Shown here one piece after another: positions 4,151 to 62,370 of a DNA stretch of 64,000 bases. The stretch spans positions 37,164,609 to 37,228,608 of the forward strand of contig CM039464.1 in assembly GCA_022414725.1 (NCBI GenBank), in the 5' to 3' direction. The notes beneath the pieces were generated by a model. It was not told the DNA's origin. It saw nothing but the letters and a program-made list of their open reading frames with translations, and did no database searches. The position numbers were made by a program, and so were the translations under genes. Every line of letters begins with the position of its first letter. Positions within the stretch are counted from its first letter, which is position 1. The DNA is from Microglena sp. YARC (lineage: Eukaryota; Chlorophyta; Chlorophyceae; Chlamydomonadales; Chlamydomonadaceae).

Positions 4151-4250
4151 CACCCGATAACTACATTTTGTCATTTTGGGTAGCTTCAAAAGCGCAGCCA
4201 AATTGCTGGCTGAAGCTATGCAACCAAGTTCAAGTTCAAGTTCAAAAGTG

Positions 4251-4530: not shown

Positions 4531-4699
4531 GCCTTGAAAACTCTGCGGGCTACCTTTAGAAACTACTATTCTCGCGCAACTGCCATTTTTGTGCGCTTTA
4601 CTGAGTTTACTAGGGGCAGCTTGTGATTTAGCAGTAAGCAAATTAGCAGAATCAAATTGATGCCTTCACTCTGAGGTCTCCATTTCAGACCAGGCGACA

Positions 4700-13580: not shown

Positions 13581-13589
13581 TATATGTAG

Positions 13590-21160: not shown

Positions 21161-21179
21161 AGTAAATGACCCCTTCAGC

Positions 21180-22394
21180 TCTCACTTGTCTCGTGCTGAT
21201 TGCTTCATCCTCACAGCCAGTTTATCAGTAGCCATCTCTTCAGCAAAGCATCCCACCCCACCCCAGCCAATAGCCCAGTCCCAGCCTAGCCCCCCAAACC
21301 AGCCCAGTCCTCTGGTTCAGTTCTGAACCCACCTTCTCAGCTTCTCCAATTTGTCGCGTGCTGATGTGCTTCAACTTCACAGCGCAGTCTTACCAGTAGC
21401 CATCTCTTCAGGCCAAAGCTATCCCAACCCCATCCAGCCAGTCCGCCACACTCCAAACCAGCCCACCCCACCAGGCCCAGTCTCTAGTCTTCAGTCTGAA
21501 CCCACCCTTCAGCTTCTCCAATTTGTCGCGTGCGTGATTGCTTCATCCTCACAGCCAGTTTTTACCAGATAGCACATCTCTTCGGCCAAGGCATCCCACC
21601 CACCCCAGCCCACCCAGTCCAACCTAGCCACCCCCACCCAGCCCCAGTCCTCTGGTCTTCAGTCTGAACCCACCCTTCAGACTTCTCCAATTGTCTCGTG
21701 CTGATTGCTTCAATTCCTCACAGCCAGTTTATCAGTAGCCATCTCTTCAGCAAAATCCCACGCCCCAGCCCACCCAGTCCAGCTAAGCCCACCCGCACAC
21801 CCAGTCCTCTCAGTCTTCAGTCTGAACCACCCCTTCAGCTTCCATCCAATTTTGTCGCGTGCTGGATTGCTTCATCCTCCACAGCCAGTTTACAGTAGCC
21901 ATCTTTCGGCCAAGGCAATCCCACCCAGCCCAGCCAGCCCAGTACCAACCTAGCCCACCGCCCCATCCCCCACCCCAACCTCCCAGTCGAACCACCCCTT
22001 CAGCCTCTCCACCTTCTCAAGTTAATTGCTTCATCCCTCACAGCCAGTTTACCAGTAGCATCTCTTCGGCCAAGAATCCCACCAGCCCAGCCCAGCCCAG
22101 TCCAACCTAGCCCACCCGCCTTCCCCCCAACCACCCTCCAAGTCATAGACACACAGACCTTCAGCGCTCTCCACTTGTCTCATGTTAATTGCTTCATCGC
22201 TCATCAGCCCAGTTTACCAAGTAGCCATCTCTTCATGCCAAGAGTGTCCATGCCCAGCCCAGCGAAGCCCAGCAACTGTAACCGCCCACCCCCACCAGCC
22301 CAGCCCACCCCCCACCCAGCCCACCAGCCCATCCTACCCACCCCACTGCCGCCCACCATCCACCCGTCTGTCTTCAGTTTTGAACCCAGAACAC
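21180..22394 (-). repeat. Donor-edge array of exon H
   Basis: About seven units of roughly 165 bases. On the minus strand each unit carries a coding-like segment readable as LAEEMATGKLAVRMKQSARD followed by KLEKLKG and a G-rich intronic tail. The same segment forms the second half of exon H (22395-22510). Units differ by many small indels. Confidence 0.75.
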
Positions 22395-22510
22395 CCTTCA
22401 GCCTCTCCAATTTGTCGGCGTGCATGATTGCTTATCCTCAAGCCAGTTTAACCATAGCTGTTTTTTCCGCAAGGCATCGACGATGAGCATGACGAAGAGA
22501 TTCCGCGCAC
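22395..22510 (-). CDS. Helicase exon H, frame disrupted
   Basis: This is the only place where the acceptor edge (CTGACAG then GTGCGCG) of the array at 22511-24300 meets the donor edge of the array at 21180-22394. By comparison with array copies it should encode a helical stretch beginning VRESLRH and ending KLEKLK, as expected just after motif Ia in IGHMBP2/UPF1-like helicases. The given sequence has several indels relative to its copies and contains an in-frame stop. I infer local sequence error or decay; exact ends are tentative. Confidence 0.5.
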
Positions 22511-25500
22511 CTGTCAGTTTGAGTTCGGGGTTGGGTCAGGTGTTTGGGGTTAAGGGTCTGATTCCTTGGGTTTTAAGTGTTTGGTTTTAAAATTGGTTTC
22601 AGTGCTTCCGCAAGGCATCGATGAGTGGAGATGACGAAGAAGATTCGCGCACCTGTCAGTTTGAGTTCGGGTTTGGGTTTCAGGGTTTGGTTTGGGTCCT
22701 GCTTCCTTGGGCTGTTTTTAAGTTTGGGTTTTAAAATTGGGTTTCAGTGCCTTCGCGCCAAGGCATCGAGAGTGATGATGACGAAGAGATTCGCCAGCAC
22801 CAGTCAGTTTGGGTCCGGGTTTGGTTCAGGGTTTTGGGTTTAGGGTCTGTTTCCTTGGACCTTGTTTTTAAGTTTGGGTTTTAAAATTGGGTTTCAGTGC
22901 CTTCTGCCAATGTATTGAGAGAGAGATGGCGTAGAGACTTGCGCACCAGTCAGTTTGGGTTTGGGGTTTTGAGTTTTAAGTTTTGGTTTTGTTCTTTTGG
23001 GGCTTGGTTTTTGGTTTTAGTTTAGGGTTTGGGTTTGTTTTTTTGCGTTTCATGTTTGGGTTTCAGTGCCTTCTGCCAATGTATTGAGAGTGAGATGGCG
23101 TAGAGACTTGCGCACCAGTCAGTTTGGGTTTGGGGCTTGAGTTGAAAGTTTGGGTTTGTTTTTTGGGGTTTGGGTTTGGTTTTTGGTTTAGTTTTTTTTT
23201 TTTTTTTTTGCGTTTCATGTTTGGGTTTCAGTGCCTTCTGCCAATGTATTGAGAGTGAGATGGCGTAGAGACTTGCGCACCAGGCAGTTTGGGTTTGCGG
23301 TTTGAGTTGAAGGTTTGGGTTTGTTTTTGGGGGTTTGGGTTTTGGTTTGGTGTTAGGGTTTTGGTTTTGTTTTTTTGCTGTTTCATGTTTGGTTTCAGTG
23401 CCTTCTTCCAATGTATTGAGAGTGAGATGGCGTAGAGACTTGCGCACATGGCGTAGAGACTTGCGCACAGTTTGGATCGAAACTTACTTGAACCCCCCTT
23501 ATATGCAACCCATTAAACTTTGCAAATGGCTCATCAGCTGGCACATGGGTCCGCTGTGAAAGTGCAGTGGCTTCAGCTGGCACATGGTGCTCGCATGTTG
23601 AAATTTGCAGTGGCTCATCAGCTGGCACATGGTGCTCGCTCATGTGAATTGAAGTGGCTTTCAGCTGGCACATGGTGCTCGCTTGTGAATTGAAGTGTGG
23701 CTTCAGCTGGCACATGATGCTCGCATGTAAATTTGCCAGTGGCTTCAGCTAGCACATGGTGTCGCATTCTGTGAAAGATTGGAGACAAAGATAAGAAGGC
23801 CCATGGCCGGGGCGGCCAAGTAAATATGAAATGCAAATGCGACCACACCCACCCGATTACAGAGACGAAGATTGCGCACTTCTAAAGTGGTACACAGCAT
23901 GCGAGGAGGTGTTTTTGACTCAACGCGCCCAAAAATGTAATCAACCCCTACCACACAGGGTGTCAACGACTCACGCACCTGTCAGCCAGATATGGGTTGG
24001 GGTTTTGCTTTGTTTGTTGTGTCGTTTAAGGGTGGTTTTTGGTGTCTTCTGCACTGTATCGAGGGTGAGATACTCCGCGCGCAGGCAAAACACCACTTGA
24101 ACCCCCTTTTTGTAACCCTACACAAGGTGGTCCACGACTCACGCACCTGTCAGTCAGTATGGGTTTGGGGTTCGTGCTTTGTTTTTGTCTGTTTTTGGTT
24201 GGCTTTCAGTGTCTTTTGCCAATGTATCGAGAGTGAGATACTCGCGCGCGACAAAACCACTTGAACCCCCCTTTTTTGACAACCCTACACCGAGGTAGTC
24301 AGCGACAGCATTGGTGCCGCCACGTCATTCAAGTATCTATAACAGTCTACATAGTATGCGTTATATAAAAAGTACCGATCTTAAAAACACGGCTCTAACA
24401 CTCAACAGACTTACCTTGGCTGGCTGCACTACATGAACCACCTGCACCCCCCTTTTTGCACCCCCTTTGTGTACAAGGTTGTCGATCCGGCACATTGGTT
24501 GTCGCCACGTCATTCAGCGTATTTATATAAAGTCTACATATTATGCGTGATATAAAATGATGACTCTTAGGGTTTTAGGGTTAAGGGTTTAGGTTTTAGG
24601 GTTTGGGTTTACACACGGCTCTAACAAGCACCAACAGACTTACCTTGGCTGGCTGCCCAACACAAACCACTCGAAGCCCTTGTCTGTGCAATAACTCAAC
24701 ACGATTGTCAACGGTAGCGTTGGTTTCGGCACATCATTCAAGTTTCTCTAACAGTCTACAAAGTATGCGTTATCTAAAAGTAACCCTCCCACCTAAAAAC
24801 ACAGCTCTTACACTCAATAGACTTGACTTGGCTGCTGTCCACAAAACCACTCGAAGCCCTTGTTTGTGCAATCCCTATACAAGCTTGTCCACTGCAGCAT
24901 TGGTGTCGTCACCTCATTCAAGTATCTTTAACAGTCTACATATTATGCGTTATATAAAAGTAACTCTTAGGGTTTAGGGTCTAGGGTTTTAGGGTTTGGG
25001 GTTTAACACGGCTCTAACACTCAACAGACTTACCTTGGCTGGCTGCCCAACGCGAACCACTCGAAGCCCTTGTTTGTGCAATCCTTCTACAAGGTTGTCC
25101 ACTGCAGCATTGGTGTCGTCACGTCATTCAAGTATCTATAACAGTCTACATATTATGTGTTATATAAAAGTAACTCTTAGGGTTTAGGGTCTAGGGTTTT
25201 AGGGTTTGGGGGTTTAAACACGGCTCTAACCACTCAACAGACTTACCTTGGCTGGCTGCCCAACGCGAACCACTCGAAGCCCTTGTTTGTGCAATCCTTC
25301 TACAAGGTTGTCCACTGTAGCATTGGTGTCAGTACATCACATAAGTATCTCTCACAACACACCTCCAACAATCAACAGACTTACCTTGGCTGGCTGCCCA
25401 ACTCAAACCACTCGAAGCCCTTGTTTGTGCAATCCCTCGACAAGGTTGTCCACTGCAGCATTGGTGTCGCCACACCCTACAAATACCTCTTACACTCAAA

Positions 25501-28500
25501 CATGCATACCTTGGCTGGCTGCCCAACGCAAACCACGCGAAGCCCTTGTTTGTAAAAATCCCTGTACAAGCTTGTCCACTGCAGCATTGGTGTCAGTACA
25601 TCACACAAGTATCTCTAACACATCTCCAACAATCAACAGACTAACCTTAGCAGGCTGCCCAACGCGAACCACACGAAGCCCTTGTTTGTGCAATCCCTCG
25701 ACAAGGTTGTCTACTGCAGCATTGGTGTCGCCACACGCGAGAATGGTCCCCATCTCCTTCCACCTAGCTGCACTGCGAGATGCCGTCTGGACCAGCACTC
25801 CAACTAGGGCCAACAGGGTTCGCGTTTTGCCGGTCCCAGGCGGGCCTTGCCACAAAGTGAAGGTACGAACCTGTTGTTGGTGTTGTGGGTGGTGGTGTGG
25901 TGGTGGTGGGTGGGGGCGTTGTACTGCTACATGCTGAAGGTACAAACCTGTTTGGTGTGGGGTGTGTGCTGTGGGGGTGTGTGTTGGGGTGTGTGTGGGG
26001 GGGGGCTGTACTGCTGCATGCTGAAGGGACAAACCTGTTGTTGTTGTTGTTTGTTGGGGTAGGGGGGGTTGAGCGCTGTACTGCCCACAAAGTGAAGGTA
26101 CGGACCTGGTGGTGGTGTGTGTGTGTGGCGGGGGGGTGAGCGTTGTACTGCTACATGCTGAAGGTACGAACCTGCTGGTGGGGGGACGAATGATGTGCTG
26201 CTACATGCTGAAGGTACACACATGTTGGAGGGGGGGTGAGTGTTGTCCTGCTACATGCTGAAGGTACACACATGTTGGAGGGGGGGTGAGTGTTGTCCTG
26301 CTACATGCTGAAGGTAGTGAATAAATAAATGCATACATACTTTATAAACCTTATTACGAGGCGTGGGGTTGAGGGGGCCAGCCCATTTGCTTGCACTAGG
26401 GCCAACCACCCAATTATTCCCCCCAAGGTATTATGTTTATGCATCCATCCATCCATCCAATCCAATCCATCCACCATCCATACACTCAAATTTAAGTATG
26501 TATTTCCTGGTGACTTCTCCTCTGCCCTCCTCTCCCACTCTCCCTCCCATCTGCTCCTCGTTCACCATCCTCTCTCTCCATCTCCTCCCCTCCTCTCTGT
26601 CCACAGCATTAGCTGCTGCTAGATCGTGTCATCTGCTGAGGTGGCAATGGCTAGGAAAAGCAGAACAGATACGCCAGACATACGCTCCTCCCCACCACCA
26701 CACACACCAGGCACTAGTGCACCCATTCATTCACCCATTTGCAGATATTCACAAGTATATTTGCACCAGCTCCCCCCTTAATCCCCCCCTACCCCCCCCT
26801 GCTTCTTCCCTTCCTCCCCCCCTCTCTCTCCCTCCTCCCTTCTTCTTCCCTTCCTTCCTTTCTATCTCCTTCCCCCCTTCTTCTTCCCCTCTCCCTTCTA
26901 TCTCCCCCCCCCCCTTCTTCTTCCCTTACTCCCTTTCTATCTCCCTCCCCCCCTTCTTCTTCCCTTCCTTTCCTCCCTACCCCAACTCTCTCCCTCCTCC
27001 TCTTTTCTTCCCCTCCTCCCCTCCTGCCCTCCTCCTCCCTCTCACCACAGCACGAGCTGCTGTGTGCTGCTGTCTGCTGTGCTGTGTCGTGCTGTGCTTT
27101 GCTGCCTGTGCTGCTGCTGTGTGCTGCTGTGCTGTGCGTGCTGTGCCGTGCTGTGCTGTGCTGGCCTGTGCTGTGCTGCTGTGTGCTGCTGCTGAACGCT
27201 GCGAGTTAACGAGGTGGTGTCGGCCGTTCAGAGCAGCACTTATGTACTCACTCCAGGCACTAATGTATCCCTCTATTACTCTATCACACACATATTTTAC
27301 CAGCTACCCCCAGCCCTTCCTCCCCCCCTTCTCCCTCCCCCCTTCTTCTTCTTCCCTCCTCTCCCTTCTCCCCTTACCTCCCCCCCCTTTTTTCCCCCTT
27401 CTCCCCTCCCCCCTTCTCTCTCCCTCCCCTTCCTCCCTCCCCCTTCTCTCTCCCTCCTTCCCTTCTTCTTCCCTTCCAACCCTCTTCCCCTTCTCTCTTC
27501 CCCCCCCCCCCCCCCCTTCTTTCTGCCTGACCCCTTCGTCTCCCCCTCCTCCCCTCATGCCCTTCTTCCTCATTCTCACCACAGGATGAGCTGCTGCTCG
27601 ATGCTGCGAGTTCTTTGAGGTGGCGCCGGCCGTTCAGGAGCAGTCCTTATGTACTCACTCCAGGCACTAATTGATCTGTCCATTACTCCTATCACACGCA
27701 TTTGTTCACCTGCTGCCCCCAGCCCTTCCTCCATCTTTCTCCCTCCCCTCCTTTCTTCCCTCCCTCTCCCTTCTCCCTTACCCCCCCTTCTCTCCCCCCC
27801 CCTTCTTTCTCCTCCTCCCCCTTGTCTTCCCTTCCTCTTCTCCTCCCCTTCTTTTTTCTCCCCCCTCCCCCCCCCTCTCTCCCCTCCTCTCCATTTCTCC
27901 CCCCCCCCATTATCTATCCCCCGCCCTCCCCTCTCCCTCCCTCCTCCTCCCTTATTTCCTTCCCCCCTCCCCCCCTCTCTCCCTCCTCCTCCCTTTCTCC
28001 CCCCCCATTATCTATCCCCCCCCCCCCCCCCCTAATCTCCCTCCTCCTCCCCTTCTTCTTCCCCTCCTTCCCCTTCTTCCTCCCTCTCACCACCTCATTA
28101 TCTGCTGCTTGACAAAGTTAATTGTTGATGTGGAGTTTGCTTGCAATAGCAGCACTTATGTACTCACTCCAGGCACTAATTAATCCATTCATTACTCTGT
28201 CAGATGTATACTTTCACCCTTCTCCCCCACCCCCCAACATACACACACACCCTGTCCTTCCTCCCCTCCCCCACTCCCCACCCTTCTCTCCTCCTCCTCC
28301 CCTTCTTCTTCCCTCTCACCATGGCGTTAGTACAAAGCACACATGTACCACTACAAAGTACACATGTACCACTACAAAGTACACATGCAGTACAAAGCAC
28401 ACATGTACCACTACAAAGTTCACATGTACCACTACAAAGTACACATGTAGTACAAAGCACACATGTACCGCTACAAAGTACACATGTAGTACAAAGCACA

Positions 28501-31500
28501 CATGTACCACTACAAAGTACACATGTACACGACATTAACATGTCTTCACACCAGGCAGTGTATTGAATCCATACGGGATGCTGTGCCAAGTATATTATCA
28601 CCCCCTTCCCCCCCTCCTCCCCTTCTACTTCCCTCTCACCACGGCGTTTGCTGCAGCTCGACGTTGCGAGTTGTTGAGGTTGGGGTGGCCTTTAAGAGCA
28701 GCACGGATGTCCTCACACCAGTCAGCGTCTTGAACCCACAAGGGACGCTGTGCGGCGATAATCTTGCTGTTTGGCGACCCAACTGGGTAGTGTGGATCAG
28801 GGTTCAGGGTTCAGGGTTTAGAGTTTGGGGTTTGGATTTAACTGAGATGGTCATTAGCTGTGCCGGGATGCTCTTGCAGTTCGGCGGTCCAACTGGGTAG
28901 AGTGGATCTGAGTCCAGGGTTCACGGTTCAGGGTTCAGGGTACGGGTTTAAGAGTTTGGGTTAAATTTTGATGGTTTTTATCTGTGCAGCGATGCTCTTG
29001 CTGTTTGGCGACCCAACTGGGTAGTGTGGATCAGGGTCCAGGGTCCAGGGTCCAGGGTTCAGGGTTCAGGGTTTAGAGTTTAGGGTTTGGGTTTACCTGA
29101 GATGGTAATTAGCTGTGCCGCTACGCTCTTGCTGTTTGGCGACCCAACTGGGTAGAGTGGATCTGAGTTCAGGGTTCAGGGTTCAGGGTACGGGGTTAAG
29201 AGTTTGGGTTAAACTTTGATGGTTTTTATCTGTGCGGCGATGCTCTTGCTGTTTGGCGACCCAACTGGGTAGAGTGCATCAGGGTTCAGGGTTCAGGGTT
29301 CAGGGTTCAGGGTTTAGAGTTTAGGATTTGGGTTAAACTGAGATGGTAATTATCTGTGCCAAGATGCTCTTGCTGTTCGGCGACCCAACTGGGTAGAATG
29401 GATCAGGGCTTAGGGTTCAGGAACTAGATTTTAGGGTTTGGGTTTAACTAGGATGGTCATTAGCTGTGCCGCGATACTCATGCCGTTCGGCGACCCAACT
29501 GGGTAGAATGGATCAGGGTTCAGGGCTCAGGAACTAGAGTTTAGGGTTTGGGTTTAACTAGGATGGTCATTACTGGGATGGTCATTAGCTGTGCCGCGAT
29601 ACTCATGCCGTTCGGCGACCCAACTGGGTAGAGTGAATCAGGGTTCAGGGTTCAGGGTTTAGAGTTTAGGTTTGGGGTTAAATTGGGATGGTCATTAGCT
29701 GTGCGGCGATGCTCTTGCTGTTCGGCGATCCAACTGGGTAGAGTTAGGGAATGGCTATGTTAGTGCATATTAGTGAATGAATCATATGAGTGAATGTTAG
29801 ATAATATTAGTAGCCGAGCCGTCTTATATTGGCAAGATTTGAACCGCGATGCTTATGCTGTTTGGCGAGCCAACTGGGTAGAGTTAGGGAACGCCTATGT
29901 TAGTTAATAGTAGTGAACGTTAGTTAATATAAGTTGGCCAAGCCATCTACAATTCACAAGATTTGAACCGCAATGCTCTTGCTGTTCGACGACCCAACTG
30001 GGTATAGTTAGGGAACAGCTATGTTAGCACATATTGGTGAATGAATGCTATTAGTGGATGTTAGTTAAGATTAGCGGAGCCGTCTAATATTGGCAAGATT
30101 TGAACCGCGATGCTTCTTCTGTCCGGCGATCCAACTGGGTAGAGTCAGGGAATGGCTATGTCAGTACATATTGGTGAATGAATTATATTAGTGAATGTTA
30201 GTTAAGATTAGTAGCCGAGCCGTCTAATATTGGCAAGATTTGAACCGTAATGCTTTTGCTGTTTGGCGATCCAACTGGGTAGAGTTAGGGAACGGCCATG
30301 TTAGTTAATATTAGTTCATATTAGTTCATATTAGTTGGCCAAGCCATCTAATATTAACAAGATTTGAACCGCAATGCTGTTGCTGTTCGGCAATCCAACC
30401 GAAATAAGCTAAAGGGACTTGCCCAACACAAACCTTGATATATACAATTCATCGCAGACATGTTCTATAGCACAGACATGTTCTAAACAAATGAAAAGAG
30501 CACAGTCGTACCTATCACGCATCGCACGAGAACTTCCGTCGGGGACCGAGGATCTGTGAATGAATTCAATCTCTCAACTGCCTCCACACGCCTCTCTGAA
30601 GTTGGGTCACGGAAGGATTGGTCAATTCGCCACAGTGCTCCCTAGGAGAGTGACAAATAAAGGTCGTTAGTAAAAATAACTGTTCAAAGCAAAGTAGTTT
30701 ATTCTATGAGTGCTGCGCAGAGAAGTGGTGGGGTCGTGGAAGGATTGGTCAATTCGCCACAGCGCTCCCTGGGAGAGTGACAAATAAAGGTTGTTAGTAA
30801 AAACCTCTGTACACAGCAAAGCAGCTTATTTTATGAGTGCTGCAGAGAATAAAAGTAGTGGGGTCATGGAAGGATTGGTCAATTTGCCACAAAGCGCTCC
30901 CTGGGAGAGTGATAAATGAAGTAGATCATTTTATGAGTGCAGCGGGGAGAAGAAGTAGTGGGGTTGTGGAAGGATTGGTCAATTTTGCCACAGCGCTCCC
31001 TGGGCTGGAAGAGTGACAAATAAAGGTTATGACTTGGTTGTGAGTAAAGCAACTGTACAAAGCAAAGTAAATAGATTCAATCTCTCAAGTGCCTCTCAGT
31101 AGTGGGGTCACAGACAGATTGGTTAATCCCACACAGCGCTCCCTGGGAGAGTGATAAGTAAAGGTTGTGAGTAAAATAACTGTTCAAAGCAAAGTAAATA
31201 GATTCAATCTATCAAGTGCCTCCACACGCCTCTCAGTAGTGGGGTCACAGACAGATTGGTTTATTCACCACAGCGCTCCCTGGGAGAGTGATAAGTAAAG
31301 GTTGTGAGTAAAATAACTGTTCAAAGCAAAGTAAATAGATTCAATCTCTCAAGTGCCTCCACACGCCTCTCAGTAGTGGGGTCACAGACAGATTGGTTTA
31401 TTCACCACAGCGCTCCCTGGGAGAGTGATAAGTAAAGGTTGTGAGTAAAATAACTGTTCAAAGCAAAGTAGTTCATTTTATGAGTGCCGTGGAGAGATGA

Positions 31501-34500: not shown

Positions 34501-34566
34501 CTGGCCCACTCCATCATCATCAGCGCTGACACTGCTGCTTGCGTCATTGTTTCCCCCTCTTGGCAC

Positions 34567-34597
<31 letters not shown>

Positions 34598-37500
34598 TGG
34601 AAAGAACATGTTTGGATTGGAGTCTCCTGGTTGCCTAGACTCGATCTGGATAATAATGCAAGGTTGGTACATTTTTGTACTGCCTACTTGGATACCTGTA
34701 CTGAATCACACACACAGTACATATCTTGCCCACCCCGTCACCTTTTTGGATGGGGTGTTGGGTGCCACGACATTGTCCCCCAGCTTAAATTGATTGTAGG
34801 GCAACCCCGACTACAGCGATTTTGTACTGCCTACGTGGATACAACCCTGAGCTTTGTGTACTGCCTACTTGTATACCTGTACTGTACCACACACACACTA
34901 CATCTCTTGCCCACCCCCTCACACTTTTTTGATGCAGTGTAGGGTGCCACGATTACACTGTCCAGCTGCTAAATTCGATTATACGGCTATCCCAGGCTTT
35001 TCCCTTTCTCTGCTGCTGTGCAGACACACTACACACAAGAGCGGTACAGCTACCCCTGCCAGGCTGGAGTTAAACTAAGATAACATATATCTTGCCCACC
35101 CTCTCACCTTTCCAGGACGGAGTGTTTAGTGCCACAATCACACTGCCCCCTGCCAAATTCGATTATAAGGCTAACCCGAGCTTTTCTCTTTTTCTGCTGT
35201 TGTGCTGACACACTGCACACAAGAGTGGTACAGCTACACCTGGATAGGAACATACATAACCATATATCTTGACTACCCCCTCACCTTTCTTGGATGGAGT
35301 GTAGGGTGCCAGGACCACACTGTCCCCCTGCTCAACCCAGTTGTACGGCTATCCCGAGCTTTTCCTTTTTTCTGCTGCTGTGCTGACACACAATACACGA
35401 GAGCTGTACAGCTACACCTGGATCGGAACATACATAACCATACATCTTGCCCACCCCCTCATCTTTCTTGGATGAAGTGTAGGGTGCCACGATCACACTG
35501 TCCCCCTGCTTAAATCGGTTGTAGGGCAATCCCGAGATTTTCCCTTTCTCTGCTGCTGTGCTGACACACTGCACACTAGAGTGGTACAGCTACCTTTTGA
35601 CTGGAACATACATAACCATATATCTTGCCCACCCTCTCACCTTTCCTGGACAGAGTGTAGGGTGCCACGATCACACTGTCCCCCTGATTAAATCGGTTGT
35701 AGGGCGATCCCGACCTTTTCCCGTTCTCTGGTGCTGTGCTGACACACTACACACTAGAGCGGTACAGCTACCCTTTGACTGGAACATACATAACCATATA
35801 TCATTGCACCTTGGAAGGACCAGGGAACAGACGACCCCACTACACCCCCACCCCCCACACACACTAAAACCCATATCCTCCAGCCTACAAACACACTCAA
35901 TTAACACCAACAAACTCATCGCACCTTGGAAGGACCAGGGAAGAGCTCGCTTTCACCCCACCCCCTCACCTTTCCTGGACGGAGTGTAGGGTGCCACGAT
36001 CACACTGTCCCCCTGCTTAAATCGGTTGTAGGGCAATCCTGAGCTTTTCCCTTTCTCTGGTGCTGTGCTGAAACGCCACACACGAGAGCGGTACAGGACA
36101 CCCTGGGTTTCAGCCCTCAGAGCCAGCAGTACAGCTCCCTCGTTTTGGAGTTGTCGGACGTTTCCTGAGCCATAAATGTCCATAAACACTTTTTCGCCAG
36201 CATCCTGAATTTGATTCAAGTTGTTTGAGTTAATTTGACTTGATTTGTGATAATTTGCATTCTTGTGCTGTATTTCCATACACCTGATCTCACCAGCATC
36301 CAAATTTGATTCAAGTTGATTTGAGATAATTTGAGGAAAGTTTCGTTAATTTTGAGAAAAATTGAGAACATTTGCATTCATGTGCTGTAAGCTCCATAAA
36401 CACTTTTTCACCAGCATACTGAGATTGATTCGAGTTGTTTGAGTTTCTTTGAGTTTCTTTGAGTTTCTTTGAGTTTCTTTGAGTTTATTCGAGTTTATTT
36501 GAGTTTCTTTGAGTTTCTTTGAGTTTCTTTATGTTTCTTTCAATTTCTTTAAGTTTCTTTGAGTTTCTTAGAGTCAATCAGAGTTCATTTCAGTTTATTA
36601 GAGTCAAATATAGTTGATTAGAGTTTTTTGAGTCAATTTGAGTTTATTTGAATTTATTTGAGAAAAATTGCATTGATGTGCTGTATAGCTCCATGAACAC
36701 GTTTTCACCAGCATTCTGAATTTGATTCAAGTTGTTCAAATTGATTTGAGTTAATTTGACTTAATTTGCATGCATTTTATATGATTTGCACTGATGTGAT
36801 GTATAGCTCCATAAAACACTTTTTCACAAGCCTACGGAGATGAATCAAGTTGTTCAAATTGATTTGGGTTAATTTGACTTAATTTGCATGCATTTGCACT
36901 GATGTGCCTTATGGCTCTATAAACACTTTTTCACAAGCTACCGAAGATTGAATCAAGTTGTTCAAATTGATTTGGGTTAATTTGACTTAATTTGCATGCA
37001 TTTGATATGATGTGCTGTATAGCTCCATAGACACTTTTTCACAAAGCTACCGAGGTTAATCAAGTTGTTCAAATTGATTTGGGTTAATTTGACTTAATTT
37101 GCATGCATTTGATATGATGTGCTGTATAGCTCCATAGACACTTTTTCACAAGCTACCCGAGGTTGAATCAAGTTGTTCAAATTTATTTGGGTTAATTTGA
37201 CTTAATTTGCATGCATTTGCACTGATGTGCTGTATAGCTCCATAAACACTTTTTCACAAGCTACTGGAGATTGAATCAAGTTGTTCAAATTGATTTAGGT
37301 TAATTTGACTTAATTTGCATGCATTTAATATGATGTGCTGTAAAGCTCCATAAACACTTTTTCACAAGCTACCGGAGATTGAATCAAGTTGTTCAAATTG
37401 ATTTGGGTTTATTTGACTTAATTTGCATGCATTTAATATGATGTGCTGTAAAGCTCCATAAACAATTTTTCACAAGCTACCAGAGATTGAATCAAGTTGT

Positions 37501-39882
37501 TCAAATTTATTTGGGTTAATTTGACTTAATTTTCATGCATTTCATATGATGTGCTGTAAAAGCTCCATAAAACACTTTTCACAAGCTACCCGAGGTTGAT
37601 TCAAGTTGTTTCATATATTTGATTTAATCTGCGATGATTTGCATTAATGTGTGTGTGTGTTTGTGTGTGTGTTTGTGTGTGTATGTGTGTGTGGGTGTGG
37701 ATGGGTGTGGGTGGGTGGGTGGGTGGGTAAGGGGTGCAAAGGTGACGCAGTCGAAGGGGAACAATACAAGAAAACCATTTCTGCTTACCTGCTTTGCTTT
37801 CATGTGTCAGTGTGTGATGGTAGATTGGTAGTGATGGTGGTGGTAGTGCGTGCGTGCGTGTTTGTGTGTGTTTGTTTCTGTGTGTGTGTGTTGGGGGGGG
37901 GGGGGGGGGAGGGGTACAAAGTGACGCATTCGGAGGGAACAATACAATAAAACCATTTCTGCCTTACCTGCTTGCGTTGATGTGTGATGGTAGATTGGTA
38001 GTGATGGTGGTGGTGGTGGTGGTGCATGCGTGTGTCTGTAACACAAAAGACCATTACTGCTCACCTGCTCTGCTTCATATGTCAGTGTGTGATGGTAGAT
38101 TGGTAGTGATGGTGGTGGGTGGTGGTTTGTGTGTGTCTGTGTGTTTGGGGAGGGGGTGGGGGTGGGGGTATAAGGGACAATTGTAGGAGAACAACACAAG
38201 AAGATCATTCCTGTTTAATTGCTTTACTTTCATGTGTCAGTGTGTGATGGTAGATTGGTAGTGGTGTGTGTGTGCTTTTCGGGGGGGAAGAAGGGGGGGG
38301 GGGGGAGGGGATATGATGGTGCACACTTGTAGGAGAACAACTCAAGACGACCATTCCTGCTAACCTGCTCTCCTTTTATATGTCGGTGTGTGATGGTATA
38401 TTGGTTGTGTGTGCGTGTGTGAGTGTTTGGGGGGGGGGGGGAGGGATATGATGGTGGCACACTTGTAGGAGAACAACACAAGACGACCATTCCTGCTAAC
38501 CTGCTCTACTTGTATATGTCAGTATGTGATGGTATATTGGTTGTGTGTGTGTGAGTGTTTGGGGGGGGGGGGGGGAGGGGATATGATGGTGGCACACTTG
38601 TAGGAGAACAACTCAAGACGACCATTCCTGCCAACCTGCTCTCCTTTTATATGTCAGTATGTGATGGTATATTGGTTGTGTGTGTGTGAGTGTTTGGGGG
38701 GCGGGGGGGGGGCGGGGGGGGTTATAAGGATGCCCAATTGTAGGAGAACAACACAAGACGACCATTCCTGCTAACCTGCTCTGCTTTTATTCCACCCAGC
38801 AGTCGCTGCTGCAGCTCCGGAACCGCCCTTGCCATCGCCCGCAAATCGTTTTCATAGCCCACCATGATCCACTTCCCGTCCTGCTGCTGCTTCAGGTGGG
38901 GGACTACAGGGGCTGCTGGCTTCTTGTTGGCTTCCTCCAACTTCCTCTTAGCTTCTGCTGCTAAGGCCTCCTGCCTTGCCTTCCACCTGGCCGCAAACGC
39001 AGCATCTGCTACAGTTGTATCCTGTGAGGGGTTTACAGTCAGGTCGGGGTTACAGGCCAGGGTAGGGTGGGGGGGTGGGGTGGGGTGGGGTAGGGTAGGG
39101 TGGGTGGGGTAGGGGTGGGGTGGGGATGGGGTGGGGTGGGTGGGGTGGGGTGGGTGGGGTGGGGTGGGGTGGGGTGGGGTGGGGTGGGTAGGGCATCCGA
39201 TGCAGTTGTATCCTGTCAGGGGTTACAGTTCAGTTCAGTTTTCAGTTCAGTTCAGTTCAGGGTGGGGTAAGGTGGTGTGTGGTGTGGGTGGGGTGGGTCA
39301 TCCGACCAGTCGCATCCTGTGAGGGTTTACAGGTCAGGGTGTGGTGTGAAGTGGGATGGGGTGGGGTGGGGTGGTGCATCCGACGCACTCGTATCCTGTG
39401 AGGGGTTACAGGTCAGGGTGTGGTGTGGTGTGGAGTGGATGGGTGGGGTGGGGTGTGCATCCGACGCACTCGTATCCTGTGAGGGGTTACAGGTCAGGGT
39501 GTGGTGTGGGGTGGAGTGGGATGGGGGTGGGTGGGGTGGTGCATCCGACGCACTCGTATCCTGTGAGGGTTACAGTCAGGGTGTGGTGTGGTGTGGAGTG
39601 GGATGGGGTGGGGTGGGGTGGTGTGCATCCGACGCACTCGTATCCTGTGAGGGTTACAGGCCGGTGTATATGTCTGATTTCTGGACACCCACAGCCCCCT
39701 CCCCCCACCCCACCCCACCCACCCCCACCCCCACCCCACAGCACCACCCACACCCCACCCACACCCCCACAGCCCCCCCCCCCCCCCCCCCTTGCACCCC
39801 GTGATAACCTCAAGCATACTGTCTATTGCATAACACTGCAAAATTCCATATTTCAACCAAAACACCCAACCACATGCCCCCA

Positions 39883-39915
<33 letters not shown>

Positions 39916-40052
39916 CCACCCCCACACGCACACCACACACCCTCCCCCCAGCCCATCTAGCATCCCATGCAACCTTGCCTACCTGTGGCATGACTGCTTT
40001 ATACAATTGGCTTGGCTTCCTGTTTTGTCAGCTCTAAGGCACCTCCCCCCCC

Positions 40053-40083
<31 letters not shown>

Positions 40084-41836
40084 CACACACACTTCCCCTC
40101 AGCCCCCCTTGCATGCCATAAAACCTTGCCCAGCTGTGGCATGCTGCTGAGAAAATTTGCCTTGGCTTCCTGTTTTGTCAGCTTCAAGCCCCCTCCCCTC
40201 CCCCACCCACCCCACCCACCCACCCACCCACACCCACACCCACACACACACACACAACCCACACATTCCTCCCAGCCCCTCATGCTTTCCTTGCAACCCT
40301 TACCTACCTGTAGCATGGCTGCTGAGACAATTGGCTTGGCCTCCTGTGTCGTCAGCTTCAATGCCCCACGCCACCCCACCCCACACACCCTTCCCCCCAG
40401 CCCCCCTTGCATCCCTTGCAACCCACACACACACCATACTCCACCCACCCACCCTTGCAACCCTTGCCTACCTGTGGCATGGCTGCCTGAGACAATTGGC
40501 TGGGCTTCCTGTGTCGTCAGCTTCCAGGCCCCCACCCACACCCACCCCACAACACCCCTCCCCCCAGCCCCCACTTGCATCCCCTGCAACAACCACACAC
40601 ACACTATACTCACACACCCACCCTTGCAACCCTTGCCTACCTGTGGCATGGCTGCTGAGACAATTGCTTGGCCTCCTGTGTCGTCAGCTTCCAGCCCCCA
40701 CCCCACCCACCCACACACCCTTCCCCCCAGCGCCCCTTGCATCCCCTGCAACCCACACACACCACTATACTGCACACACACACCCTTGCAACCCTTGCCT
40801 ACCTGTGGCATGGCTGCTGAGACAATTGGCTGGGCTTCCTGTGTCGTCAGCTTCCAGGCCCCCACCCCACCCCACCCACACACCCCTCCCCCAGCGCCCC
40901 TTGCATCCCCTGCAACCCACACACACACTATACTCCACACACCCACCCTTGCAACCCTTGCCTACCTGTGGCATGGCTGCTGAGACAATTGGCTGGGCTT
41001 CCTGTGTCGTCAGCTTCAATGCCCCCACACCCACCCCACACCACCCCTTCCCCCCAGCCCCCTTGCATCCCTTGCAACCCACACACACACCATACTCCAC
41101 CCACCCACCCTTGCAAACCCTTGCTACTGTGGCATGGCTGCTGAGACAATTGGCTTGGCCTCCTGTGTCGTCAGCTTCCAGGCCCCTTCCCCCACCCCAC
41201 CCCACACACCCTCCCCCCAGCCCCACTTGCATCCCTGCAACCCACACACACACTATACTCCACACACCCACCCTTGCAACCCTTGCCTACCTGTGGCATG
41301 GCTGCTGAGACAATTGGCTGGGCTTCCTGTGTCGTCAGCTTCAAGGCCCTCACCCAACCCACCCCACACACCCCTCCCCAGCGCCCTTTGCATCCCTTGC
41401 AACCCACACACACACTAAACTCCACCCACCCACCCTTGCAACCCTTGCCTACCTGTGGCATGGCTGCTGAGACAATTGGTTGGGCCTCCTGTTTAGTCAG
41501 CTTCAAGGCCCCCATCAATCGTTGCCGCAGTTCCGCCTTGGTCTCTGCCAAGGTCTTTTTAGGAGGAGGCATAGGCTTTTTAGAGGGTGCAGTGTCTGTA
41601 TTTGTCTCAGGTGCTGATCCTCCGGACCCACTGGGGACGCCAGCAGGAGCTGATGGAAGAGGAGAACCCAAACTCGCAAGCTTGTTTGTGGAGGCATGGG
41701 CCATAGCAGCAGTAGCAGGGGCAGGAGCAGCAGCAGTAGCAGGCGTAGGAGCAGGAGCACTAGCAGTAGAAGTAGCAGCAGCAACGGCAGCAGTAGCAGT
41801 AGCAGCAGCAGCAGCAGGAGCAGGAGCACTAGCAGT

Positions 41837-41895
<59 letters not shown>

Positions 41896-42955
41896 CAGGA
41901 GCAGGAGCAGCAGCAGCAGCAGGAGCAGCAGCAGTAGGAGCAGTATCAGTAGCAGAAGCAGCAGAGTGTGTTGCTGAGGATGGAGGTGAAGGGGGGGGTG
42001 AGTTGGTCTTAGCAAACGGATTCAAGCGGGAAGGGTCGGATGGAGAGGAGGCTGAGGATGGCAGAGTGTCTGACGTGGTCTGGGCCGAAGACTTGGGGGA
42101 TGTAGGGCTTGTGGACGATGGCAGAGGGGTGTGTGCTGAGGAAGAAGATGTCGGTGGGGGTGAAAAAGGATCTGCCTTTGTTTTGGCTGCTGCCTTTCGG
42201 GTTGTAGGGATTGCTGGCAATAGGAGTGAGGGCGAGTCGGTAGGCAGAGATAAGGGTGTGGATACCTTCGTCTTGGCTGCTGACTTCCGGGGTGTAGGGC
42301 TTGCTGGCGATAGGAGAGAGGGCGATTCGGTTGACGGGGATAGGGGTGGGGATACCTTTGTTTTGGCTGCTGCCTTTCGGGGTGTAGGGCTTGCTGGTGA
42401 TAGGAGAGAGGGCGATTCGGTCGACAGGGATATGGTTGGGGATACCTTTGTTTTGGCTGCTGACTCCCGGGGAGTAGGGCTTGCTGGTGATAGGAGAGAG
42501 GGGGATTCGGAAGACAGGGATAGGGGTGGGGATACTTTCATCTTGGCTTTGCCCACACGTGGTAGTCTGCCTGATCCAGATAAGGCTTGTTTGATCGCTG
42601 CTCGTGTTAGTGCTGGTGCTGGTGCTGGTGCTAGCGCTGGCGCTGGTGCTGGTACTTGAGCTGCTGCCGCTGCTGCTGCTGCTGCTGGCGCTGCTACTAC
42701 TGGTACTTGAGCTGCTGCTGCTGCTGCTGGTGCTACTGCTGCTGCTGGTGCTGGTGCTACTGCTACTGCTGAAGCTAATGTTGAGGCATTCTGTTGGGGA
42801 GTGCTGCTGGGTGCCTCTGTGGGGGAGACTGTAGGTAGGCTACGCTTCCTTCCTCGTGGTGGAACCACAGGCAGGGGAGGTGGATTGACAGGCTGGGAGG
42901 GGGGGGCGCTGATAGCTTCAGGTGTGTCCTCTAGTCTGGCAAATGGAATAACCAC
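22395..42955 (-). CDS. SF1 helicase, IGHMBP2/SMUBP-2-like, giant gene (partial model)
   Basis: Minus-strand gene with exons 42955-41453, 39021-38776, 36204-35970, 34402-34206, 30641-30512, 28782-28640, 25870-25646 and noisy 22510-22395. Intron phases are 0, 0, 1, 0, 1, 0, 0, and every junction keeps one frame; the seven clean exons give 893 codons. Order: about 500 low-complexity residues, a basic helical segment, an IGHMBP2-like region with LPYNRF and GDSVIV, a Q motif LNNSQ, Walker A GPPGTGKT at about residues 827-834, then motif Ia DTNAAVDNLVEGL and VRVGQPAK. The family comprises ATP-dependent RNA/DNA helicases acting in translation, RNA decay or DNA metabolism. DEAD-like motif II and motifs III-VI are not found, so the 3' part is missing, in the gap or further downstream. 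The start codon is unresolved. Confidence 0.8.
22511..24300 (-). repeat. Acceptor-edge array of exon H
   Basis: At least nine copies of a minus-strand unit in which a 3' splice site (CTGACAG or a relative) is followed by GTGCGCAAGTCTCTACGCC-like sequence, readable as VRKSLRHLTLNTLAEGTE. Copies lie near 22640, 22790, 22940, 23105, 23275, 23450, 23960 and 24140. Between units are TTTGGGTTT-rich intronic stretches. These are incomplete copies of the start of exon H. Confidence 0.75.
23530..23770 (+). repeat. 43-base tandem repeat (CAGCTGGCACATGGTGCTCG)
   Basis: Five to six copies of a roughly 43-base unit, CAGCTGGCACATGGTGCTCG followed by CATGTGAATTTGCAGTGGC-like sequence, inside the exon H acceptor-edge array. 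No function is visible. Confidence 0.8.
24310..25645 (-). repeat. Donor-edge array of exon G (motif Ia)
   Basis: About eight copies of the last third of exon G. Each reads, on the minus strand, DTNAAVDNLVEGLHKQGLRV then VRVGQPAK, followed by a GTAAGT or GTTAGT donor. They are separated by intronic sequence that includes TTTAGGG-type words near 24570-24610, 24968-25005 and 25178-25212. Upstream of the coding part the units have no obvious acceptor except an internal GCTGCAG, so they are mostly donor decoys. Confidence 0.85.
25646..25870 (-). CDS. Helicase exon G: Walker A and motif Ia
   Basis: A 225-base exon (75 codons, phase 0 at both ends) between an ACAACAG acceptor and an AAG/GTTAGT donor. 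It encodes VRTFTLWQ, then the P-loop GPPGTGKT, a linker, ILACGDTNAAVDNLVEGLHK (motif Ia) and LRVVRVGQPAK. The P-loop binds ATP phosphates; motif Ia contacts nucleic acid. The NAAVDNLVE and RVGQPAK words are diagnostic of the UPF1/IGHMBP2/SEN1 group of SF1B helicases. Arrays of its edges flank it on both sides. Confidence 0.9.
25871..26325 (-). repeat. Acceptor-edge array of exon G
   Basis: About six or seven units ending, on the minus strand, with an acceptor and GTACCTTCA followed by GCATGTAGCAG or CTTTGTGGGCAG. These mimic the first 15-20 bases of exon G. Several units have GTACCTTCAGCATGTAG, which would stop after six codons if spliced. Units are separated by GT-rich stretches. Confidence 0.8.
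26510..28639 (-). repeat. Donor-edge array of exon F with pyrimidine-rich spacers
   Basis: Five or more long units. On the minus strand each carries a decayed copy of the end of exon F (for example near 27590-27680 and 28085-28165), then GTGAGAG-like donor sequence, then long GGGAAGAAGAAGG runs (CCTTCTTCTTCCC on the plus strand). Long Pro/Ser/Leu frames on the plus strand come from this CT-rich DNA and are not genes. Confidence 0.7.
28326..28530 (+). repeat. 18-base ACATGTAC minisatellite
   Basis: Alternating ACAAAGCACACATGTACC and ACAAAGTACACATGTA words, about eleven copies, inside the exon F donor-edge array. Confidence 0.85.
28640..28782 (-). CDS. Helicase exon F: Q motif
   Basis: A 143-base exon that starts after CTACCCAG and ends at GTG/GTGAGAG. 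The first two bases complete a codon begun in exon E; the rest is 47 codons. It encodes QRPLWVQDADWCEDIRAAL followed by GHPNLNNSQRRAAANAV. The LNNSQ word is the SF1 Q-motif position, where the glutamine contacts adenine just before the Walker A exon. Its start is duplicated upstream about sixteen times and its end downstream about five times. Confidence 0.88.
28783..30410 (-). repeat. Acceptor-edge array of exon F
   Basis: About sixteen units. Each minus-strand unit ends TACCCAG followed by TTGGGTCGCCAAACAGCAAG and GCATCGCCGCACAG, matching the first bases of exon F. Units at 28783-29700 have GGGTTCAGGG/TTTAGGG-like spacers; those at 29740-30410 have AT-rich spacers with ATATTAGT words. Every unit presents a plausible 3' splice site. 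Confidence 0.87.
30512..30641 (-). CDS. Helicase exon E
   Basis: A 130-base exon between CTCTCCTAG and ATAG/GTACGA, giving 43 codons and one extra base. It encodes GALWRIDQSFRDPTSERRVE followed by AVERLNSF and a short tail. The position, after the region with GDSVIV and before the Q motif, and the GALWRID word fit the linker before the helicase core of IGHMBP2-like proteins. It is the only copy that continues beyond the duplicated edge. No donor-edge array follows it, an exception in this gene. Confidence 0.85.
30642..32060 (-). repeat. Acceptor-edge array of exon E
   Basis: About twelve units of 90-140 bases. On the minus strand each has CACTCTCCCAG then GGAGCGCTGTGGCGAATTGA and CAATCC, the start of exon E (GALWRIDQSF). 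All keep a polypyrimidine tract and AG. Spacers contain TTTACTCACAACCTTTA-like sequence. Confidence 0.9.
32165..32405 (+). repeat. GGGTCGTGAAAA minisatellite
   Basis: Alternating 12-base GGGTCGTGAAAA and 16-base CGCCGGGTCGTGAAAA units. On the minus strand the unit resembles the TTCACGACCC end of the exon E edge copies, so it appears to be a secondary amplification within that array. Confidence 0.85.
32500..34205 (-). repeat. Donor-edge array of exon D
   Basis: About eleven units of roughly 140-150 bases. Each reads on the minus strand GAGGTGAAGAAGGGCCACGT and on to GACAAG/GTAATG, encoding EVKKGHVLITLDDG and ASDRLEEACLDK, then a GGTGTCAGG/GGTGGGTG spacer. Units at 33620-34205 are nearly identical, showing recent amplification. 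If spliced from the GTGAG or CAG before the unit, each could behave as a cassette exon of 84 bases. Confidence 0.9.
34206..34402 (-). CDS. Helicase exon D
   Basis: A 197-base exon that starts after CGTGTAG; its first two bases complete the codon split from exon C. It ends GACAAG/GTAATG. It encodes PRGGNIDAGSSVSADDDGVG, QPERKISAQASQLMD and then VLEVKKGHLLITLDDG with SDRLEEACLDK. It lies in the domain before the helicase core. The upstream partial copy (34465-34575) has an alternative CTTGCAG acceptor for the same edge. Confidence 0.85.
34403..34575 (-). repeat. Single acceptor-edge copy of exon D with ATTAC tract
   Basis: The first half of exon D is repeated at about 34465-34565 with a few substitutions and a CTTGCAG acceptor. 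An (ATTAC)n/(ATTGC)n tract at 34431-34462 sits at the junction. The same pentamer tract forms the tail of the LINE at 61477, so a LINE-like tail may have been involved; this is only an inference. Confidence 0.75.
34725..35969 (-). repeat. Donor-edge array of exon C
   Basis: About six units of roughly 180 bases. Each carries on the minus strand the end of exon C (LPYNRFKQGDSVIVAPYT) followed by a GTGAGAGG-type donor, then spacer with GGGCAAGATATATGG-like sequence. Several copies retain an open frame through the edge. Confidence 0.88.
35970..36204 (-). CDS. Helicase exon C
   Basis: A 235-base exon starting after AAATTCAG and ending GGAAAG/GTGAGG, with 78 codons plus one base. It encodes DAGEKVFMDIYGSGNVRQLQ, NEGAVLLALRAETQGVLYRS, RVWRFSTAPEKGKSSG and LPYNRFKQGDSVIVAPYT. 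The order LQ..G..LL, LY..R, LP.N.F..GD matches the domain 1B region of IGHMBP2-like helicases, which packs on the motor core and contributes to substrate binding. Both its edges are tandemly amplified in the neighbouring introns. Confidence 0.87.
36205..37625 (-). repeat. Acceptor-edge array of exon C
   Basis: About ten to twelve units of roughly 118 bases. On the minus strand each reads TGAATCAAnnTC, then a short AG-containing junction, then TGTGAAAAAGTGTTTATGGA, the start of exon C (EKVFMD). At 36430-36560 the spacer is itself a 10-base GAGTTTCTTT tandem repeat. Confidence 0.85.
37640..38775 (-). repeat. Donor-edge array of exon B
   Basis: About seven units. Each has on the minus strand AAAGCAGAGCAG/GTTAGCAGG or a variant (the last codons of exon B and its donor), then AATGGTCGTCTTGTGTTG, then GT-rich and poly-G spacers. 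Some donors read GTAAGC or GTGAGC. Confidence 0.87.
38776..39021 (-). CDS. Helicase exon B
   Basis: A 246-base exon (82 codons, phase 0) between CCCCTCACAG and GCAGAGCAG/GTTAGC. It encodes DTTVADAAFAARWKARQEAL, a lysine- and alanine-rich helix ending EEANKKPAA, then DGKWIMVGYENDLRAMARAV and PELQQRLLGGIKAEQ. A helical region before the helicase domain is typical of the family, though I see no diagnostic motif. It connects in frame with exons A and C. Confidence 0.83.
39022..39665 (-). repeat. Acceptor-edge array of exon B
   Basis: About six to seven units. Each on the minus strand ends CCCCTCACAG then GATACGAGTGCGTCGGATGC, matching the start of exon B (GATACAACTGTAGCAGATGC). Spacers are GGGGT-rich on the plus strand (39060-39190). 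Confidence 0.87.
39690..41452 (-). repeat. Donor-edge array of exon A
   Basis: About nine units of 155-170 bases, with donors near 39979, 40131, 40308, 40470, 40638, 40801, 40966, 41126 and 41290. Each reads on the minus strand LKLTTQEAQPIVSAAMPQ followed by GTAGGCAAGG, a copy of the last 18 codons of exon A plus its 5' splice site. Spacers are C- and CA-rich on the plus strand. Confidence 0.92.
41453..42955 (-). CDS. Helicase exon A: low-complexity N-terminal region
   Basis: A 1,503-base exon (501 codons) that starts after CTCCTCTAG and ends CCACAG/GTAGGC. It begins VVIPFARLEDTPEAIS. An alanine/proline-rich segment follows (42600-42780), then five copies of a roughly 30-residue repeat with AKTKVSPPLSL and SPSLLSPASPTPRK, then a second polyalanine tract from a GCT/GCA microsatellite, then KKTLAETKAELRQRLMGALK and the C-terminal LTKQEAQPIVSAAMPQ. 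The Ser/Pro/Lys repeats suggest a disordered, phosphorylatable tail. This region is not part of the helicase family consensus. Confidence 0.78.
41700..41985 (-). repeat. Triplet microsatellite coding for polyalanine
   Basis: AGC/AGT and AGG triplets on the plus strand give uninterrupted GCT/GCC/GCA alanine codons in exon A and no stops in other frames. A second tract lies at about 42600-42780. Repeat number is likely to vary between strains. Confidence 0.9.
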
Positions 42956-43155
42956 CTAGAGGAGGAGAGGGGCGGTTATAGGTGGTTATGAGTGGTTATA
43001 GGTGGTTTTAGGGGGTTATGAGTGGTTATAGGTGGTTATAGGAGGCTATAGGTCGTTTTAGGTGTGCCCTTCAACCCGGCACTTGGAATGGGAGGGGGAG
43101 CGCTGGTAGCATCAGGTGTGTCCTCTAGTCTGGCACTTGTATTATCCACCTTCAT
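42956..43155 (-). repeat. Acceptor-edge copies of exon A and possible start codon
   Basis: Between 42965 and 43055 a CCTATAACCACTCATAACCA-type repeat (minus strand) fills the intron. At 43060-43155 the start of exon A recurs (GCCAGACTAGAGGACACACC), preceded by ATGAAGGTGGAT with the ATG at 43155-43153. This may be the true translation start or a decoy; no donor that would join it cleanly to exon A is certain. Confidence 0.55.
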
Positions 43156-62362: not shown

Positions 62363-62370
62363 TGCTATTA

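What the first reader, a model, noticed from the sequence alone, without database searches (positions are those of the whole stretch)
21180..43155. Introns of the helicase gene are built from tandem copies of exon-intron boundaries
In introns A-B, B-C, C-D, D-E, F-G and G-H, the 5' part is a tandem array whose unit begins with the end of the upstream exon plus its 5' splice site. The 3' part is a second array whose unit ends with the 3' splice site plus the start of the downstream exon. Intron E-F shows only the acceptor array. Array periods differ between introns (about 83 to 180 bases), so each amplified on its own. The real exon is the unique place where both edges are joined, and the exons so defined keep one frame over seven junctions. 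I know of no named mechanism that gives this both-sides pattern; boundary-anchored tandem duplication or template switching are candidates.
Basis: partly seen in the sequence, partly recalled or inferred. Interest (0 to 1): 0.96.

Follow-up and report, generated by a model that had tools for sequence, protein, structure and literature searches.

The report
Introns built from copied exon edges
In a helicase gene of what is likely a green alga, most introns consist largely of tandem repeats whose unit includes the neighbouring exon edge and its splice site, a pattern reported before on a small scale in lancelets, and it likely arose by repeated local DNA duplication that is tolerated because the outermost splice sites would still mark the true exon.

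Summary
In the helicase gene 15 of 17 splice edges carry tandem copies of the exon edge plus its splice site; donor copies lie in the downstream intron, acceptor copies in the upstream intron. Exons 0 and A-G read as one frame; H, as printed, does not. It is not unheard of: lancelet "mirages" are the same kind of structure. New are the extent, most of the intron length of one gene, and the lineage. The copies are not hidden exons: in 11 arrays tested, fixed exon-versus-array differences fall by codon position as 13:10:32, variants among copies as 107:82:118, near the intronic rate. Helicase introns minus edge arrays are 193-684 bases in seven of eight cases; two long introns of the next gene stay long (2783, 803). 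Copies resemble the exon less with distance from it in 12 of 15 arrays. A stop-codon edge next door is duplicated too. Best explanation: neutral tandem duplication filtered by selection on the coding exon, with splicing that would follow exon definition. A preference for edges is not excluded. No reads, cDNA or genome-wide search were available.

The parts
43319..43387 (-). helicase exon 0 (assumed start codon, no donor array)
42894..43172 (-). acceptor duplication of exon A: one extra copy, exonic 62 nt at 85%
41453..42955 (-). exon A; holds an internal in-frame 90-nt repeat (4 copies)
39770..41514 (-). donor array of exon A: 10 junction-spanning copies, about 163 nt apart, up to 62 exonic nt
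39001..39665 (-). acceptor array of exon B: 6 copies about 80 nt apart, about 21 exonic nt
   Evidence: not significant on exonic bases alone
38776..39021 (-). exon B
37745..38791 (-). donor array of exon B: 7 copies about 136 nt apart, about 16 exonic nt
   Evidence: not significant on exonic bases alone
36160..37631 (-). acceptor array of exon C: 11 copies about 108 nt apart; AG kept in 4 of 11
35970..36204 (-). exon C
34747..36096 (-). donor array of exon C: 6 copies about 178 nt apart, up to 127 exonic nt
34299..34565 (-). acceptor duplication of exon D: one extra copy, 104 exonic nt at 94%
34206..34402 (-). exon D
32630..34291 (-). donor array of exon D: 11 copies, 124-165 nt apart, GT kept in 11 of 11
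30598..32060 (-). acceptor array of exon E: 11 copies, AG kept in 10 of 11
30512..30641 (-). exon E (no donor array)
28747..30285 (-). acceptor array of exon F: 12 copies, AG kept in 12 of 12
28640..28782 (-). exon F
26600..28724 (-). donor array of exon F: 5 copies 153-606 nt apart, with polypurine and simple repeats between
25850..26295 (-). acceptor array of exon G: 6 copies, AG kept in 4 of 6
25646..25870 (-). exon G (Walker A motif GPPGTGKT; AAA_11)
24415..25735 (-). donor array of exon G: 7 copies, about 90 exonic nt
22465..23447 (-). acceptor array of exon H: 5 copies counted, AG kept in 1 of 5
22396..22510 (-). exon H as printed in the assembly; frame broken; the donor GT is probably one base further on
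21173..22458 (-). donor array of exon H: 6 copies counted, 160-173 nt apart
43990..51628 (+). calmodulin-like gene, five exons (43990-44065, 44506-44594, 44746-44782, 49278-49435, 51539-51628); its protein is identical to P0142
47498..49352 (+). acceptor array of calmodulin-like exon 4: 4 junction-spanning copies
49428..50834 (+). 83-nt donor array of calmodulin-like exon 4: 14 copies counted, only 8-10 exonic nt
51598..51809 (+). tandem duplication of the last 31 nt of the CDS, the stop codon and following 3' UTR (the same pattern at a stop codon)

Best explanation
The introns carry tandem arrays whose units span the exon edge and splice site, and these likely arose by repeated local tandem duplication (slippage or unequal exchange) of roughly 60-180-base segments, of which selection would keep only those that leave the coding exon readable. 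Shown in this window: units join exon and intron; polarity and strand are uniform; the exon side differs from its arrays as coding sequence does, and the copies vary nearly like intron; helicase introns minus their edge arrays are mostly short; copies tend to resemble the exon less with distance from it; the same duplication occurs at a stop codon. Inferred: a duplication across a donor or acceptor is nearly neutral because the original exon keeps an intact acceptor-to-donor pair, and that pair is the only such adjacency between the arrays. Splicing by exon definition would choose it, while pairing the nearest donor with the nearest acceptor would not. The exon, kept by selection, would act as a lasting master copy, so arrays grow from the exon outward and lengthen the intron. 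Duplications inside exons would survive only if in frame.
For: 15 of 17 edges with copies. All 70 listed non-self exon hits have one strand and the expected intron. Donor and acceptor copies do not interleave in 6 of 6 introns that have both. In 11 of 17 arrays (A and D acceptor with one copy, G acceptor, calmodulin exon 4 donor and the two H arrays not counted) fixed exon-versus-array differences by codon position are 13:10:32 over about 200 sites each (p=4e-4), copy variants 107:82:118, pooled 0.51 exonic and 0.56 intronic variant states per site. Intron length minus edge-array extent is 193-684 nt in seven of eight helicase introns; median introns of six core-Reinhardtinia algae are 198-343 nt (passages). 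Identity falls with rank from the exon in 12 of 15 arrays, alignment score in 14 of 15. Units of 15 arrays share nothing once low complexity is masked. Exonic share of the unit 0.10-0.71. Stop-codon duplication in the calmodulin-like gene. The exon-internal repeat has period 90, a multiple of 3, while 12 of 17 edge units are not multiples of 3 (unit lengths entered by hand). Relatives' proteins are gap-free across the calmodulin-like junctions and across E/F and F/G of the helicase, and P0066 goes on with VREGLRHLTLEALAE after G.
Against: Edge arrays outnumber interior ones (15 to 4, interior counted by eye) more than random placement predicts unless ancestral introns were about 250 nt (P 0.20 at 250 nt, 0.03 at 320, 0.005 at 400, 0.001 with the array-subtracted lengths, 3e-12 at today's lengths). 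Array-subtracted length stays large in G-H (1273) and in the two long calmodulin introns (2783 and 803), and other Chlamydomonadales have mean introns of 516-934 nt (passages), so the match to short ancestral introns is loose. One search measures extents, which at F include simple repeats. Copy variants dip at codon position 2 (p=0.03), and single arrays differ widely between exonic and intronic rates. F acceptor, H donor and calmodulin exon 4 donor show no fall in identity from the exon. E donor, calmodulin exon 3 donor and exon 5 acceptor lack arrays although their introns are long. Relatives vary in length around the D/E junction. The stop-codon score of 54 was passed by the best of 190 random pairs in that repeat-rich stretch (58). 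No transcript of this organism was seen, so the use of the outermost sites rests on reading frame and protein conservation.
Confidence: 0.7

Rival explanations
1. A boundary-specific process, such as splicing- or transcription-linked breaks or R-loops at splice sites, makes duplications start at exon edges.
For: 15 of 19 counted array families in the helicase introns span an edge; excess over random placement if ancestral introns were 320 nt or longer; both ends are hit in six of the seven introns A-B to G-H.
Against: Stop-codon duplication; many arrays at 4-18.7 kb, where I established no gene; exonic share varies 0.10-0.71; three short introns of the neighbouring genes lack edge arrays.
Confidence: 0.15
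2. The copies are functional alternative exons or decoy splice sites kept by selection to regulate the helicase mRNA.
For: GT kept in 55 of 60 donor copies (H left out) and AG in 42 of 56 acceptor copies, calmodulin exon 4 included; a public gene prediction of this locus uses array copies as exons (P0064).
Against: Copies vary almost evenly over codon positions and pooled at about the intronic rate; 12 of 17 units are not multiples of 3; relatives' proteins lack such inserts at E/F and F/G.
Confidence: 0.05
3. The introns were created by tandem duplication of an exonic segment with a proto-splice site (the Rogers-type intron gain model, details recalled).
For: Tandem duplication and splice signals are involved; PMC3087553 links mirages to intron gain (passages).
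Against: That model puts downstream-exon sequence at the intron 5' end and upstream-exon sequence at its 3' end. No such hit was listed, and wrong-side scores were 8-20 except F acceptor at 32, which I read as the F donor unit reaching back to nt 30 of the exon.
Confidence: 0.03
4. Assembly artefact from noisy long reads.
For: The exon H part near the 1000-N gap is indel-rich.
Against: Copies differ by fixed and private variants, and fixed differences follow codon position, which an assembler would not produce; exons 0 and A-G are open.
Confidence: 0.05
5. Introner-like transposable insertions.
For: Introns of one gene are repeat-filled.
Against: Units of 15 arrays share nothing with each other after low-complexity masking; without it one 35-nt opposite-strand match.
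Confidence: 0.02

Closest known systems
[quoted passage not shown] Adh3, TnC, globins BflGb6 and BflGb9, PGBD5)
   Same: Units span exon end or start plus the splice site; both boundary types occur; unit lengths overlap (150-160 and 157 bp in globins); many copies keep AG/GT; regular splicing is inferred here and was reported there from RT-PCR (PMC3087553 passages; PMC3902484 passage)
   Different: Likely a green alga; 15 of 17 edges of one gene; array extents cover over half of seven of eight introns; copies are more alike each other than to the exon in only 5 of 12 arrays, whereas homogenisation with an excluded boundary copy was reported for BflGb6
Intron gain by tandem duplication of proto-splice sites (Rogers-type model, details recalled; cited in PMC3087553)
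   Same: Tandem duplication meets splice signals
   Different: Opposite polarity: here the intron's 5' part copies the upstream exon and its 3' part the downstream exon
Introner elements (recalled)
   Same: Repeated sequence inside introns
   Different: Units are specific to each edge within this window

Membership tests
Amphioxus-type mirages | tandem repeat unit spans an exon-intron boundary and includes the splice site | tested here: met
   15 of 17 helicase edges, 2 of 8 in the calmodulin-like gene (one with only 8-10 exonic nt), 0 of 2 in the ARM-RING gene
Amphioxus-type mirages | either the 5' or the 3' boundary can be duplicated | tested here: met
   7 donor and 8 acceptor edges in the helicase gene (D acceptor)
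Amphioxus-type mirages | copies homogenised among themselves, boundary copy excluded | tested here: inconclusive
   copy-copy identity above exon-copy identity in 5 of 12 arrays
Amphioxus-type mirages | regular splicing not disturbed | tested here: inconclusive
   open frame and gap-free relatives only; no transcript of this organism
Amphioxus-type mirages | length polymorphism and somatic instability | not testable with these tools
   one haplotype, no reads
Intron gain by tandem duplication of proto-splice sites | intron 5' end copies the downstream exon, intron 3' end the upstream exon | tested here: not met
Introner elements | one sequence family shared by many introns | tested here: not met
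   within this window only

The most novel reading that the evidence does not exclude
In this algal lineage introns lengthen by a conveyor: each exon edge, kept clean by selection, is the master copy from which boundary-spanning units are shed into the intron, youngest next to the exon and oldest in the middle. Long introns are then little more than two such arrays meeting, and the genome is a natural test that splicing here follows exon definition.
Probability: 0.35. Interest if true: 0.8.

Novelty: new variant of a known kind. Interest (0 to 1): 0.62.

Why it matters
If true, it is a concrete route by which introns get long: edge-spanning tandem duplication instead of transposons. It supplies dozens of near-identical competing splice sites per gene in which position, not sequence, would have to decide, so it could test exon definition directly. 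It also warns annotators: a public gene prediction of this locus already contains array copies as exons. The codon-position test used here can be applied genome-wide to tell true exons from their copies.

Tried and rejected
Whole-genome tests failed: the genome search on the own assembly did not complete, so no genome-wide count was possible. A scan of viral contigs for a related locus found none, and plasmids none. Rfam at gathering thresholds and ARAGORN (bacterial code) found nothing, so a tRNA-like stretch that I noted by eye near 52600 is not supported. Duplicated start-codon edges in three genes: none; the ARM-RING stop codon: none; only the calmodulin-like stop codon is duplicated (score 54; 190 random pairs had mean 18.6 and maximum 58 in that repeat-rich stretch). 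In the same call the extra test with 200 nt of UTR is void because query and target overlapped. Microhomology at the duplication breakpoints was not tested, because it cannot be separated from the unit itself. Template switching had no test of its own. Literature: eight searches; in the listings and in the passages I opened boundary-spanning tandem duplications appeared only for lancelets. The library lacks most subscription journals, and no paper was read whole. The species was not identified.

Full report
Setting. The window is eukaryotic. The finding lies in a minus-strand gene for a superfamily-1 helicase: AAA_11 at 3e-19, with UPF1, SMUBP-2 and SEN1 among the solved relatives. The nearest named relatives are chlorophytes (Volvox, Chlorella, Tetrabaena, Astrephomene), so the source is likely a green alga; the species was not identified. 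Two proteins in the public database seem to come from the same assembly: P0064 (518 aa), whose pieces read from the helicase locus, and P0142 (149 aa), identical to the calmodulin-like protein next door.

Gene models. Exons 0 and A-G of the helicase translate without a stop and every intron is GT..AG. Exon H as printed has a stop; its arrays carry many indels, and the assembly has a 1000-N gap about 2.8 kb further on. The plus-strand calmodulin-like gene has five exons and the minus-strand ARM-RING gene two.

The copies. Exons A-H compared with the window give 70 listed non-self hits: 10, 0, 10, 11, 11, 14, 8 and 6 for A to H; for exon A only hits touching its two ends were listed (11 of 66 with itself). 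All are on one strand and in the expected intron. With exonic bases alone 13 of 17 helicase edges beat all 200 shuffles, 1 of 8 in the calmodulin-like gene and 0 of 2 in the ARM-RING gene. Queries spanning the junction add the two B edges, where the exonic part is only about 16 and 21 nt. Junction-spanning copies number 10, 7, 6, 11, 5, 7 and 6 for donors A, B, C, D, F, G and H, and 1, 6, 11, 11, 12, 6 and 5 for acceptors A, B, C, E, F, G and H; D acceptor has one copy whose intronic half does not align. Calmodulin-like exon 4 has 4 acceptor and 14 donor copies, the latter with 8-10 exonic nt. Counting exon 4 too, GT is kept in 55 of 60 donor copies (H left out because its GT is set one base off) and AG in 42 of 56 acceptor copies; 11 of the 14 AG losses are at C and H. 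The donor that gives the open frame is the first, the acceptor the last, and donor and acceptor copies do not interleave in the six introns that have both.

What the copies are. Eleven of the 17 arrays were used (one-copy arrays, G acceptor, exon 4 donor and the H arrays not counted). Fixed exon-versus-array differences fall 13:10:32 by codon position (p=4e-4), so the exon has evolved as coding sequence since the duplications. Variants among copies fall 107:82:118, pooled 0.51 variant states per exonic and 0.56 per intronic site. The copies therefore vary nearly like intron, with a mild dip at position 2 (p=0.03) and wide scatter between arrays. This argues against hidden exons and against an assembly artefact.

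How the introns got long. Taking off the edge-array extents leaves 230, 193, 254, 408, 684, 256, 412 and 1273 bases for the eight helicase introns; at F the extent includes simple repeats. The introns without edge arrays in the neighbouring genes are 440, 151 and 404, but the two long calmodulin introns stay at 2783 and 803. Median introns of six core-Reinhardtinia algae are 198-343 (PMC8226300, passages); means in other Chlamydomonadales are 516-934 (PMC11247165, passages). Identity to the exon falls with distance from it in 12 of 15 arrays with four or more copies, alignment score in 14 of 15, as expected if new copies arise next to the exon; F acceptor, H donor and exon 4 donor do not show it in identity.

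Is the boundary special? The exonic share of the unit varies from 0.10 to 0.71. A stop codon with 31 bases of CDS is duplicated in the calmodulin-like gene, 181 bases apart. Large arrays fill 4-18.7 kb, where only an ORF list was made and no gene established. An exon-internal repeat has period 90, a multiple of 3. These fit random duplication filtered by selection. Against this, 15 of 19 array families in the helicase introns span an edge (interior families counted by eye), where random placement gives 0.42-0.67 depending on the assumed intron length, P from 0.001 to 0.20, and 0.10 with P 3e-12 if introns already had today's length. A preference for edges remains open.

Splicing. Between the arrays a true exon is the only place where an acceptor is followed by a donor copy. 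Recognition across the exon would choose it, pairing the nearest sites across the intron would not. This is inference, supported by reading frame, by relatives that are gap-free at E/F, F/G and the calmodulin-like junctions but vary in length around D/E, and by the lancelet precedent, not by transcripts of this organism. The public prediction P0064 includes array copies as exons at 40343-40308, 33296-33204 and 25452-25387.

Relation to known things. Lancelet mirages are the same kind of structure: boundary-spanning units of 150-160 bp (BflGb6), 157 bp (BflGb9) and 10-72 bp (Adh3), on either boundary, with regular splicing suggested by RT-PCR (PMC3087553, passages), also named for TnC and PGBD5 (PMC3902484, passage). 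The present case differs in extent and lineage. Rogers-type intron gain predicts the opposite polarity and introners predict shared units; neither is seen here.

Limits. One window, one haplotype, no reads, no transcripts of the species, and no answer from the whole-genome search (nine tries). How general the pattern is in this genome is unknown.

Noticed in passing
51598-51809 (+): Tandem duplication of the CDS end, stop codon and 3' UTR of the calmodulin-like gene, two copies 181 bases apart.
   Followed up: yes
4250-18751: Over 12 kb of diverse tandem arrays (54, 61, 106, 159, 11-50, 28/56/84 bases) next to a 1000-N gap.
   Followed up: no
P0064 against 40343-40308, 33296-33204, 25452-25387: A public gene prediction of this locus includes array copies as exons, so automated annotations of such genomes may hold false exons.
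   Followed up: yes
60243-64000 (+): Reading frames that look like a gypsy-type LTR retrotransposon (gag-like, protease-like, reverse transcriptase-like), judged by eye.
   Followed up: no
42143-42502 (-): Exon A has a 90-base in-frame repeat (4 copies), and long Ala/Pro runs elsewhere.
   Followed up: partly
19760-24500: By eye this part looks poorly polished; the H arrays in it have raised indel rates.
   Followed up: partly
32191-32399: A 12-base tandem array inside intron D-E, not tied to an exon edge.
   Followed up: no
46774-47296 (+): A 139-base tandem array inside calmodulin-like intron 3, not tied to an exon edge.
   Followed up: no
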